This document shows positions 56,578 through 61,562 of a stretch of DNA of 64,000 bases, one piece after another. Position numbers and translations under genes: made by a program. Position 1 is the first letter of the stretch. Each line of letters begins with the position of its first letter. This DNA comes from Cryphonectria parasitica EP155. Lineage: Eukaryota; Ascomycota; Sordariomycetes; Diaporthales; Cryphonectriaceae. The stretch lies in the NCBI RefSeq assembly GCF_011745365.1, contig NW_024468912.1:3844001-3908000 (forward strand), written 5' to 3'. The notes under the pieces were generated by a model, which was not told the origin of the DNA, ran no database searches, and was given only the letters and a program-made list of their open reading frames with translations.

Positions 56578-56876
56578 TCAGCAGCTGGTCCACTCCTGGA
56601 TACCAACAATGACATTGAAGCCATTGCTGTCAAATGCCTGGCCCCAGGCTACCTGCTCATCGATGCCGCTGCCTTCAACATCGTTCTCTATCCACTATTT
56701 TTCATAGTATATTTCATGATCAGTAATCGATCTGACTCAATTGGCTGATCGGATCCGGTGGTAGTAGTGAATAGCAGTAGACTCACGGCACAAGCAGGCT
56801 GGGAAGTATCCTGGTAGTTGATGACGTACTGGGCGTACGCTGCCATGGTGGAGTAGTAGACCCAGATATCGTGCTC

Positions 56877-56881
56877 GTTGT
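56877..56881. repeat. Target-site duplication GTTGT, left copy
   Basis: The five bases immediately before the left LTR; the identical pentamer follows the right LTR at 60766-60770. Five-base duplications are typical of LTR-retrotransposon integrase. Confidence 0.88.
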
Positions 56882-57047
56882 TGTGGGAAGGAACGACTGC
56901 TCGGATAGTAGTTACCCTAACAGCTACCCGTATTTACTACATAAATTGAGCTAGACAGGAGTTCTTCTCTTCTCCTCTTCAATGAAAAACAACAATCAAC
57001 ACCCATCACAGCGAACATCGTACATACGTACTTGCTTAGCAATCACA
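56882..57047. repeat. Left LTR of outer element
   Basis: 166 bp starting TGTGGGAAGG and ending AATCACA. Aligns along its whole length with 60603-60765; differences seen by eye are mostly C in this copy versus T in the other, plus a few bases at the 3' end. Confidence 0.88.
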
Positions 57048-57208
57048 GATCTGCAAGGTTAAGGAGATACAGGCTCTCAGGAACTCCCTGCACATCGCAT
57101 ACTTACCTAGCTGCCTGTATGCTATATATCGAGCATTATCACTCCAGATCTTCCTGTTGTTAAACTCCCTGAACGAGGCTTGAGAAAGATCGAAGGCACC
57201 GACTCACG

Positions 57209-58142
57209 ATGCCGCCTACCCGCAAGACCAAGAGCGCCCATCTGGAGGCCACCAAGCGTGACCTCCCCTTGGTCGTGCAACACCTGGTGTGCATGAAATG
57301 TGCTACCATCACTGAGTACGATTGCGTGCCCTCCTGCGAGGAGCCCATCACGCTGGCTTGCCAGCATTCCACGGCCTCGTCGTCCGCCTGCGACGTATGC
57401 TCAGCCAATAATAAGGTGTGCCAACAGATAGGTTGCGTCTCGTGTGTGTATTGCCTGCAACTCGCGTCTGATACGTGATCTAGCATCCAATCGTGCTGCA
57501 GGGCAACCTGTGGCACCTGCAGGCCCTTCTCCATTACGGCGCTACCTTCTAGCAGAAGAATTCCGTGGAGAATGAGGACGAGGGTGAGGACATGGACGAG
57601 GACGACTGTGCCAATCTATTCGATGACGAGGATCGCCTCTTGGTTGCTAAGGTGCAGCACCGACTCGTGTGCGCGTTCCTGGCGGCTCGCTCGGCCCACC
57701 TGTCCGAGTGGGCCATGACAAGCAACAAGAAGCCTACTATGGCGGCCTACCAGGCCTACATGGAGTTTGCCGACCGTTGTACCACAATGAGGTTTGACTT
57801 CGTTAAGGCTAGTTCTAGCTTCAAGAAGGTGAGTCTCTGATGCGTCTCTGTGGTTGCTCCAGCGATACTATGGCTGATCTCTGGCGATAGTGGTTGATTA
57901 TCAAGAGAATCTGGGCCCTGCTGCCCCGTCTGATCCCTGTTGACTCGGGTTTTATTATCTAGTTGCTGGCTGTTGAGGAGTATTGCAATGCTTTTCGTGA
58001 TATTATCATGAGCTATAACAAAATCAGGGAGATTCACGGGCTGACTGAGAAGAAGCTGGAGAATGTTCTCGTTTCTGCTATTAATCGGGCTATGATAGCC
58101 TGTCTTGATAACTTCTCTATGGATCTAGCTTTAATTAATTAG
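57209..58142 (+). CDS. Cysteine-rich protein encoded inside the LTR element
   Basis: Three coding segments with usable splice sites: 57209-57415, 57553-57828 and 57963-58142 give an uninterrupted 220-aa frame (donors GTGTGC and GTGAGT, acceptors TTCTAG and ATCTAG). The first 69 residues are rich in Cys pairs (HLVCMKC, CVPSCEE, LACQH, ACDVC), suggesting metal binding. The second segment has a very acidic stretch (MENEDEG-like, EDMDEDD) and a helix-rich region; the third is alpha-helical (EEYCNAFRDIIMSYNKIREI). A competing model uses nearer acceptors (GCTGCAG at 57501, GATAG at 57890), giving longer exons interrupted by TAG at 57550 and 57960, which would make it a pseudogene with CAG-to-TAG-like changes. 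It is not Gag, Pol or a transposase I know. Either captured host gene or element-specific protein. Confidence 0.5.
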
Positions 58143-58539
58143 AGCGGATTGCATAAATGCAACTCTCTGTTAATATGAGTATTAGTTGGGAATTGCTAGG
58201 GAAATGGGGGCGGGAAAGGCTCTGACAGGAATATCGGCGATGATTTGATAATTTGGCGTTTTGATAGCTGTTACCGGTTAGGTAGGGTAGGGAAGCATTC
58301 CTATTACAGTAGGCTTTTTTAAGAATGCAAGAACCAATTGTAGCCTAATCTCTTCTGGAACTGTGACTATGCTATCTTCTGATGCTTGCTGTCTCCTCAA
58401 GTGCTTTGTAGATTCTTCTTCTTAGCTTATTGCTGTGTAAATTGATATAACTTTTGTAGAGTATTTCTTAGATAATCCTCAGGTTCCCAGGTGTTGTATT
58501 CAGATAGCTATCCTTGCTACTTCACCAGATAATGCTTTT

Positions 58540-59001
58540 TGTAATGATGCACTGCAATATCCGAAGATCCTGAAGTATACAAAGAGTTTATGCTAGCAAG
58601 AGCGGTATCAAAGTAAGAACCAATTGAATACAGAAATGTAACTGAGTAATCCGTGCAAGTGCTTTCATTCGCCTTTGGGGCTATTCAAGTATATAACAAA
58701 TGAATACTTAGATTAACGACTGAAGAGCTATGTTCTGATAGTCTATCTAATAGTAATAAACGTGTTCTTATATATCCTGCTCTTCAGTCCTGTTGACTAT
58801 GTTTCCGTTGGATTACTTGGATTATCTGAATGATTCTACTGATCCGGATCACCTTGGATCAGCTACTAATTCATACTGATCCTGTGATTCTAACCCTTGA
58901 TTATCTAATCCTAATTAATCTTATTCATATGCTGAGCTGTATTGCTAGCTTCTTGTTAGCAGGGCCTGTTTCATGATCTGTATATTGGATGGATTATAAC
59001 A
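58540..59001. repeat. Left LTR of nested element
   Basis: 462 bp, TG...CA ends. Homologous to 59661-60068 along nearly all of its length. Confidence 0.78.
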
Positions 59002-59152
59002 TCATCTTTCTTCTATTAGTTATTATTCTCAATGATCTTCTGTAAGTATTCTAGCAAATTGCTTATATGTTTGATCATGCCTTCCTGATCGAGATATCAA
59101 ATAGAATCAACAAAACTTATTTTGTCGGAATAAAGGCATTGGTCTCATGTGG

Positions 59153-59194
59153 GTGAAAGGGCCTTTCAGGCCCCTGACACCAGGGCCCTTTCAC
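59153..59194. repeat. Perfect 11-bp inverted repeat in nested element
   Basis: GTGAAAGGGCC at 59153-59163 pairs with GGCCCTTTCAC at 59184-59194 around a 20-base loop. It is GC-rich within AT-rich surroundings, and a further GGCCCTTTG follows at 59212. Confidence 0.9.
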
Positions 59195-59660
59195 TAGGTT
59201 TCGGGCTAGCCGGCCCTTTGTTGTACTTTTCCTATAGAAACGGGTGCACCAGTACCTCTGGCCCCAGGATAGTTAGAAGGATTAGTGCAAGTGAACTATG
59301 ACCTGGCTTTTCACCCATCCTTCACCCCGATGAGTTCACTGCCCCACATTTGACATATTTCAATCATTCAGTGAAAATCCAAGAGCGCTATTGTCTTGCT
59401 AAGCTTATTTCTATCTTTGGTATCGAAATGCCTGCTTGTGCTTATTGCTAAGAAACGAAAGCTTCCTGCTGTTTTGCTAACAACTCTTCTCGTTATAGAG
59501 AGTATATTTCCTTGAGCTAAAGTTGCAATACTGGTTGTTTTTCAGCATCTGCTAGTTGGTATTTCTCTTTCCTAGTTATCTGCACATGCTAATGATCCTT
59601 TGTTCTTTAGCAGAACGCCTGATTCATAAAAAGTATAAGATCTTAAGCAAGGAAGCTGAG

Positions 59661-60068
59661 TGTAATGATGCACTGCAATATCCGAAGATCCTGAAGTACA
59701 CAAAGGGTTTATGCTAACAAGAGCAGCGTCAAAGTAATAACCAATTGAATACGGAAATATAACTGAGTAATCCGTGCAAGTGCTTTCATTCGCCTTTGGA
59801 GCTATTCAAGTGTGTGACAAAAGAATACTTAGATTGACGACTGAAGAGCTATGTCCTGGTGGTCATCTAATGGTAATGAACGTGTTCTTATATATCCGGC
59901 TCTTCAGTGTGGCTCACTTGGCTCACTGATGATCCAAATGATCCATCCCTGTCATAACCCTAACCCTTGATTACATAATCCTGGTTGGTTGTCCGTCGTC
60001 GTGTTGTAATGCTTGGTTCCTGTTGCTGGAGCCTGTTTCGTAACCTGCAAGCCGGGTGGGTTATAACA
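59661..60068. repeat. Right LTR of nested element
   Basis: 408 bp copy of the 58540-59001 repeat. Shorter, mainly through a deletion in the AT-rich 3' third; ends GGGTTATAACA. Confidence 0.78.
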
Positions 60069-60602
60069 CTTTGTTTGAAACTTGCAATAAATAATAAGCA
60101 TACTAAGCATATCATTTTAGCTATTATAGCTCTTGTTAGCAATACTGCAATTTCCAGCAAACTTTGGAATTATATTAGCAATACTAAGACTGAGATTAAG
60201 AAATGAGTTATTTTTCTGATAGAACTGCAGAGCTTTCTGAACTGAATGAAGATTAAACAACTTTGCTTAGCTAGCATCAAAACTATTGTATGCAAATATA
60301 TTCCAATCTTCTGCAAGATTACAGCTAAGATTGCTGCTAATCCCAAAACTTCTGCTGCAATGCTTGTTGATCCCGATTACAATAGCAATCCCGATTACAA
60401 TAATAATCTCTTTGAATTTACAAATCTTAATATGAGCGAATCTGATTATAATAATAATAACAATTCCTTTGTCTGAATCAAAGATGATTGTTATTGGAGG
60501 GTGGAGGGATGGAAATTTTGGAACAGTGATAGGGATGAGTGAACTGATGATACTTGTCAAGGTTGGAAGAATGGAGCATTATTACATTTTAAAGACTGCT
60601 AG

Positions 60603-60765
60603 TGTGGGAAGGAATGACTGCTCGGATAGTAGCTATCCTAATAGCTATCCGTATTTACTACATAAATTGAGCTAGACAGGAGTTCTTCTCTTTTCCTCTT
60701 CAATGAACAACAACAATCAACACCCATCACAGCGAACATCGTACGTACGTACTTGCTAACCAACA
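60603..60765. repeat. Right LTR of outer element
   Basis: 163-bp copy of the left LTR, starting TGTGGGAAGG and ending CCAACA, followed directly by the GTTGT target duplication. Confidence 0.88.
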
Positions 60766-60770
60766 GTTGT
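60766..60770. repeat. Target-site duplication GTTGT, right copy
   Basis: Identical to 56877-56881. On the minus strand it is part of the Asp-Asn codons of the interrupted gene's fourth exon. Confidence 0.88.
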
Positions 60771-61562
60771 CATTGCAGACATACTATGGACCTTGTAAGT
60801 AAGTGATTACTCTAGTAGGGTAGAGCTGAACAAGTGCCCGGGAGAGACTTACGATGCCAGAGTCCTTCTCGCAAGAGACACGGGTGCAGCAGCCTCCACC
60901 AACCTTCCTGTCCGATGATACAGCATCAGTCATTGTATACATACATTTTACCCCTTCTCTCCCTCCTCATTGGGGAAAAGAGAACGCTTACCAGCCGAAC
61001 TCAGTGTAGCCGTCTTTGTCGTTCAGGTAGGTGATGCCATCAGCAAGCATCTCGGTGGGAGACCAACCAAATCCAGGGTTTCGGCAGATGACATGAGTGA
61101 TGTTGGTGGCGAGCCCACCAGTCTATGTTGCATATTAGCATAAGGCCCTTTATGCAGGGTTGAAGGGGACATACCATGCTGTTGTTGAGGGACTTGTCCA
61201 GGTCCAAGACGGCAGGGGAGATTGCCTTGGCTGTGTCCGCAAGGACACCAGCTGCAATGGGAGCAATGATGTTGAATACCATGGTCATTGCACATAGGTG
61301 GTGAGTGTACATAAGCCTAGGTGCTTGGTAGGGATACAGGTCTGGGCTTTGAAGAAAAGAATTCGACGTTGAAAAGTTAGTAGGTAGGTTAGTGAAGTCT
61401 TCGAAGTGACGTCCAGCTGTAGTACAGCCTCGTCATTGAGGCCAGGTGGTCACTTGGACAAGTGAGAAAGATAGAATCACATGAAAATGTTATTTTCAAG
61501 CATTCACCTGTGTCCCACGACTCTCGTGATTTGAAATGGAGGTCAGTATTTATAAGTCTTCG

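What the first reader, a model, noticed from the sequence alone, without database searches (positions are those of the whole stretch)
56578..61288. Cysteine-rich secreted-protein gene cleanly split by an LTR element
Five exons of a small Cys-rich protein are recoverable on the minus strand with every splice site and phase intact. The fourth exon is interrupted by 3.9 kb bounded by LTRs and a perfect GTTGT duplication. Absence of other damage suggests a recent insertion, so other isolates may carry the intact allele. For a small secreted protein of a plant-associated fungus this could be a presence/absence effector polymorphism.
Basis: partly seen in the sequence, partly recalled or inferred. 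Interest (0 to 1): 0.85.

Follow-up and report, generated by a model that had tools for sequence, protein, structure and literature searches.

The report
Mobile element splits small secreted-protein gene
In the reference strain of the chestnut blight fungus, a gene for a small cysteine-rich secreted-type protein has been cut in two by a jumping element, which very probably killed it; this is an ordinary kind of event, and whether other strains keep the gene whole is still unknown.

Summary
The window is Cryphonectria parasitica EP155. A minus-strand gene of five GT-AG exons (61312-56578) is interrupted in exon 4 by a 3,884-bp LTR element (56882-60765) between GTTGT duplications. The two pieces, tested apart, fit consecutive parts of one small-secreted-protein family (profile 108-173, E 2e-12; 183-224, E 0.009, weak) and keep its six near-invariant cysteines. 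An intact paralog's model looks KP4-like; the insertion would remove the last helix, two strands and two cysteines. Most likely a null allele. The annotated model M406DRAFT_68632 ends in a tail read from the element. Effector role and polymorphism are not shown: relatives occur in many fungi, no second genome is held, and lack of damage is weak evidence of recency. Raw LTR divergence is no clock either, as the element carries one-way C:G>T:A hypermutation (126 of 127 differences in 534 bp against a sister copy). It contains two nested insertions. The two other loci found have inverted U3 ends with their own 5-bp duplications. New member of a known kind.

The parts
61175..61312 (-). host gene exon 1 (start codon uncertain: 61312 is the first ATG taken here; the annotated model begins further in, at MVFN)
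60992..61122 (-). host gene exon 2
   Evidence: GT-AG introns of 52 and 84 nt on either side
60853..60907 (-). host gene exon 3 (Cys-rich core)
   Evidence: family profile match
60766..60783 (-). host gene exon 4, part upstream of the insert; includes one copy of the target-site duplication
60766..60770 (.). target-site duplication GTTGT, right copy
56877..56881 (.). target-site duplication GTTGT, left copy
56787..56881 (-). host gene exon 4, part downstream of the insert
56578..56694 (-). host gene exon 5 with stop codon
   Evidence: with exon 4b fits the C-terminal part of the family profile, weakly
56882..57036 (+). 5' LTR (begins TGTGGG; inner end deleted relative to copy L026)
60603..60765 (+). 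3' LTR, TGTGGG...CCAACA, 163 bp; carries five C>T relative to the 5' LTR
57209..57962 (+). element gene with introns, annotated M406DRAFT_68631 (P0123, 183 aa); no Pfam domain; relative M406DRAFT_326833 in L028. End read off the sequence (stop after ...SGFII)
58540..60068 (+). nested composite inner LTR element: LTR1 58540-59001, LTR2 59661-60068 (two different LTR subtypes)
59123..59355 (+). solo LTR nested in the inner element, TATTT duplications at 59118-59122 and 59356-59360; 1 difference in 233 to copy L025, 3 in 240-245 to L021 and L022
60069..60602 (+). RIP-like hypermutated tract: 126 of 127 differences to L027 are C>T or G>A towards the window; tapers towards the 3' LTR and the host gene

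Best explanation
A low-copy, apparently non-autonomous LTR element integrated into exon 4 of a gene of an unnamed small-secreted-protein family whose C-terminal domain is predicted to be KP4-like, duplicating 5 bp (shown by sequence, the fold by prediction on a paralog only). The insert separates the conserved Cys core from the C-terminal helix, two strands and two cysteines, so the gene is most likely a null allele in EP155 (inferred). A composite inner LTR element and a solo LTR lie inside it, added later or already aboard, and RIP-like hypermutation struck the 3' half of the element, fading towards the host exons (shown, apart from the order in time). The annotated gene M406DRAFT_68632 is the 5' remnant plus a tail read from the element.
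Against: The 3' piece matches the family only weakly (E 0.009; exon 4b alone E 3-4, exon 5 alone E 0.12-0.13) and keeps 4 of 8 near-invariant positions, against 16 of 24 in the 5' piece. The N-terminal part of the family was not found, so the gene may have been divergent or decaying before the insertion. Foldseek's match of the paralog to Zt-KP4 is not significant by E-value (0.23). No transcript data.
Confidence: 0.85

Rival explanations
1. Recent, segregating insertion (differs from the best explanation in age and frequency): other isolates carry the uninterrupted gene and the locus is a presence/absence polymorphism of an effector.
For: No stops or splice damage in the pieces. Between the LTRs only 1 of 8 differences is a transversion, K 0.0065 (95% range 0.0002-0.036), a figure that leaves out all C>T and G>A change and so is low. 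Polymorphic TE insertions and within-species variation of effector candidates are reported for C. parasitica (PMC7935491 section 10; PMC7565894 passages).
Against: Intactness says little at these ages. Two further insertions and hypermutation lie in the element. PMC7935491 found no preferential association of candidate effectors with TEs (passage). Relatives in many fungi, saprotrophs included (lifestyle recalled). No empty site was seen and none could be sought.
Confidence: 0.25
2. Old decayed copy (again the same event, other age): the gene was a divergent, non-essential member of the family, and the insertion is fixed in the species.
For: No orthologue found with the 5' piece (1 protein, itself, of 3 candidates; word-limited search). 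Missing N-terminal part. 8 of 24 and 4 of 8 near-invariant positions changed or absent. Raw LTR K 0.052.
Against: The near-invariant cysteines are kept, frames open and splice sites intact; most LTR differences are of RIP type.
Confidence: 0.5
3. The locus still makes a product: a shortened protein with an element-encoded tail, as annotated (M406DRAFT_68632).
For: The public model P0001 has this form; tail at 60636-60589.
Against: Lacks the last helix, two strands and two cysteines of the domain, judged from the paralog model. A gene model is not proof of a transcript.
Confidence: 0.1
4. The two exon groups belong to unrelated genes and the apparent split is accidental.
For: The 3' piece alone matches the family weakly.
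Against: Perfect 5-bp duplication at both edges, open frames on both sides, consecutive family positions.
Confidence: 0.03

Closest known systems
Zt-KP4 of Zymoseptoria tritici (PDB 8acx) and the KP4-like fold
   Different: 7% identity; the Foldseek E-value (0.23) is not significant; the window gene itself was not folded and its activity is unknown
Ecp2/Hce2 effector family (PF14856)
   Same: Some relatives carry a UniRef label beginning 'Ecp2 effector prot...'
   Different: Neither the pieces nor the paralogs and members tested match PF14856; the genome's four Hce2 matches lie elsewhere
Inactivation of AVR1 by transposon insertion in Fusarium oxysporum f. sp. lycopersici (PMC3428301, seen as title and start of abstract in a search listing)
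   Same: Secreted-protein gene inactivated by a mobile element
   Different: There linked to race emergence; here no phenotype, population or function data
Small non-autonomous LTR elements (TRIM, PMC6934838, title and start of abstract in a search listing; LARD, recalled)
   Same: Direct terminal repeats around an internal part in which no reverse transcriptase or integrase was recognised
   Different: Carries its own gene of unknown family; the two other loci found have inverted U3 ends instead of direct LTRs

Membership tests
LTR retrotransposon insertion | direct terminal repeats beginning TG and ending CA | tested here: met
   TGTGGG...CCAACA; 147 of 155 aligned bases identical; the inner end of the 5' copy is deleted
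LTR retrotransposon insertion | short target-site duplication | tested here: met
   GTTGT on both sides
LTR retrotransposon insertion | gag-pol (reverse transcriptase, integrase), for an autonomous element | tested here: not met
   No Pfam family over its cut-off in the 10 ORFs of 60 aa or more inside the insert, nor in P0123, P0122 and an L027 frame; short or mutated remnants could be missed; hence called non-autonomous
Hce2/Ecp2 (PF14856) | match to the Pfam profile above its cut-off | tested here: not met
   0 families for the 5' group, exon 4b and exon 5, given as three separate queries; no PF14856 match for the 4 paralog frames or 6 family members
unnamed small-secreted-protein family | conserved Cys core and C-terminal Cys motif | tested here: met
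   5' group E 2e-12; 3' group E 0.009; the 6 near-invariant cysteines kept
unnamed small-secreted-protein family | N-terminal region (profile 1-107) | tested here: inconclusive
   not found in 197 upstream open segments; a diverged exon could be missed
KP4-like fold | alpha/beta sandwich superposing on KP4 structures | tested here: inconclusive
plant-pathogen effector | secreted and acting on the host plant | not testable with these tools
   hydrophobic N-terminus but no secretion predictor, expression or phenotype data
RIP | one-way C:G>T:A change in repeated DNA | tested here: met
   126 of 127 differences; in the inner LTR family 2 of 7 copies compared with L024 show it strongly (49 of 60, 52 of 64), the other 5 do not (15 of 44 to 24 of 63)
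RIP | CpA preference as in Neurospora (recalled) | tested here: not met
   rates CA 38/78, CG 45/84, CC 34/85, CT 9/51

The most novel reading that the evidence does not exclude
The element family integrates in two forms: direct-repeat LTR (window) and inverted, with the U3 end at both termini (L026, L027), each with its own 5-bp duplication. This would mean that snap-back reverse-transcription products are genuine substrates of the integration machinery. In addition, C. parasitica hypermutates repeats in CpA, CpG and CpC contexts alike, so that the dinucleotide RIP index fails to flag a tract in which a quarter of the sites have changed.
Probability: 0.4. Interest if true: 0.5.

Novelty: new member of a known kind. 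Interest (0 to 1): 0.3.

Why it matters
It corrects a public gene model (M406DRAFT_68632 is a truncated gene with a tail read from a mobile element) and defines a concrete locus for testing presence/absence variation in the chestnut blight fungus. It also shows that neither intact exons nor raw LTR divergence can date such an insertion where RIP-like hypermutation acts without the usual CpA bias.

Tried and rejected
Dating by raw LTR divergence: rejected, since at least 6 of 8 differences are of RIP type. Dating by the inner LTR pair: rejected; 18 of 61 differences in 406 bases are transversions, and LTR1 differs from L024 by 5 transversions where LTR2 differs by 19, so they are not one insertion's pair. 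Left-flank homology of the inner element to L027 with a purine/pyrimidine alphabet: no signal (27 against a shuffle mean of 29). Composite RIP index: negative over the hypermutated tract (-1.38) and over the host parts (-0.67, -0.71), near the window's mean (-0.66), but positive over the two outer LTRs (0.65, 0.34), so composition alone neither finds the tract nor tests leakage well. L028 against the window shows change in both directions and 23 transversions in 837 bases, so it is an older relative and no RIP yardstick. PDB sequence search with the paralog alignment A1: 0 matches. Paper search for the gene name: 0 papers. DNA search of the genome with the upstream host part: only itself. Folds other than KP4, Y3, a fungal lectin, DUF26 and ERH did not appear among the second-look rows, which shows nothing about them.

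Full report
What it is in. The 5' part of the gene finds one protein among 3 candidates: M406DRAFT_68632 of Cryphonectria parasitica EP155, 100% identical over 91% of the query. The window lies at 3844001-3908000 of contig C4 of a 43.8-Mb assembly in 17 contigs; C4 has 5.1 Mb.

Observation. Five exons on the minus strand with four GT-AG introns of 52, 84, 69 and 92 nt are present. Exon 4 is cut by 3,884 bp (56882-60765) that begin TGTGGG, end CCAACA and are flanked by GTTGT on both sides. The terminal direct repeats differ at 8 of 155 aligned bases.

Same gene on both sides. I kept the two exon groups apart throughout. Four other loci in the genome match the 5' piece (E 1.9e-4 to 0.024). An alignment of frames from these four found 660 relatives among 1,186 candidates, 120 of them listed; a profile was built from 73 of those 120 (length 180-250 aa, starting with M). 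The 5' group matches profile 108-173 (41.6 bits, E 2e-12) and the 3' group matches 183-224 (10.1 bits, E 0.009); the best of 200 shuffles of each scored 0.3 and 7.1 bits. Exon 4b alone (E 3-4) and exon 5 alone (E 0.12-0.13) are not significant. Placed one at a time into a 44-protein alignment, the groups cover P0002 residues 32-158 and 158-211. They keep 16 of 24 and 4 of 8 near-invariant positions, including the six near-invariant cysteines. The 3' evidence is weak on its own, but together with the target-site duplication it is convincing.

The public gene model. P0001 ends in residues that the family profile does not match; the last 15 and the stop are encoded at 60636-60589, that is 34 bp inside the 3' LTR and 14 bp of the adjoining interior of the element, antisense. 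The next model, M406DRAFT_68631, is the element's own gene (P0123). The two annotated genes are therefore a remnant with a mobile-element tail and a mobile-element gene.

The insert. Its LTR was found at three loci: here, L026 and L027 (7 matches, all 6 first-look candidates scored; counts of repeats are lower bounds). No reverse transcriptase or integrase was recognised in its 10 ORFs of 60 aa or more. Inside lie an inner LTR element made of two LTR subtypes and, within that, a 233-bp solo LTR with its own TATTT duplication that differs from another copy at 1 of 233 bases. L026 and L027 end in the U3 sequence at both termini, in inverted orientation, with ATTAT and GTCTT duplications; the left end of L026 reads TATGGG.

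RIP-like hypermutation. Between 60069 and 60602 the window differs from L027 at 127 of 534 aligned bases; 82 are C>T, 44 G>A and 1 is other. Rates by context are CA 38/78, CG 45/84, CC 34/85 and CT 9/51. Density falls from 17 of 60 to 5 of 54 towards the 3' LTR, which has five C>T in 155 against the 5' LTR. In the inner LTR family, 2 of 7 copies compared with L024 show the same direction (49 of 60 and 52 of 64 differences); the other 5 do not (15 of 44 to 24 of 63). Pooled context rates are CA 0.16, CC 0.18, CG 0.24, CT 0.07. The composite RIP index is negative over the hypermutated tract and positive over the outer LTRs. PMC8545091 (passages) states that RIP evidence exists for C. parasitica and that CpDmt1 is the rid orthologue.

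Age. Lack of damage is weak evidence: in a neutral simulation the pieces remain free of stops and splice hits in 85, 69, 50, 35 and 19% of cases at 0.5, 1, 2, 3 and 5% divergence, indels ignored; at 10% it is 3%. LTR divergence gives K 0.052 in full and 0.0065 for the single transversion (0.0002-0.036), the latter too low because it drops all C>T and G>A change. With assumed rates of 1e-9 to 1e-8 per site and year (recalled) the ranges run from about 8,000 years to 51 million years. The window and L027 share all but one non-RIP base in 534, which bounds only the younger of the two insertions. Age and allele frequency remain open.

Context in print. PMC7565894 (passages) reports candidate effectors that vary within C. 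parasitica; PMC7935491 (section 10 and passages) reports polymorphic TE insertions and no preferential link of candidate effectors with TEs. In what I saw, neither names this gene; a search for its locus tag together with 'Cryphonectria' found 0 papers; supplementary files were not read. Loss of secreted-protein genes through mobile elements is known (PMC10823647 passages; PMC3428301 listing).

Verdict. A real and cleanly resolved disruption of a member of a widespread small-secreted-protein family. The effector and polymorphism parts are speculation until other isolates are examined.

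Noticed in passing
L026:594-1202 (C7:2633993-2634601): Sister copy is a near-palindrome: LTR plus leader followed by their inverted repeat, U3 end at both termini, with its own ATTAT duplication.
   Followed up: partly
L027:742-1712 (C2:4364141-4365111): Second sister copy: U3, a run of about 29 A, then an inverted LTR and 3' interior, ending in an inverted U3 fragment, with GTCTT duplications; looks like an aberrant reverse-transcription product that integrated.
   Followed up: partly
window 60069-60602: Hypermutation with almost no CpA preference, not flagged by the composite RIP index.
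   Followed up: partly
window 57209-57962; L028: Element gene with a Cys-rich N-terminus; 2 proteins, both of C. parasitica EP155, among 121 candidates, no Pfam domain; fragments also on C3 and C6.
   Followed up: partly
window 60766-60783; L035, L036: In at least two paralogs an intron follows the CND codons directly (frames against annotated proteins P0003 and P0002), within a few bases of where the element inserted here; may be coincidence.
   Followed up: no
window 58060-58540: Stretch of the element for which the genome search found only itself.
   Followed up: no
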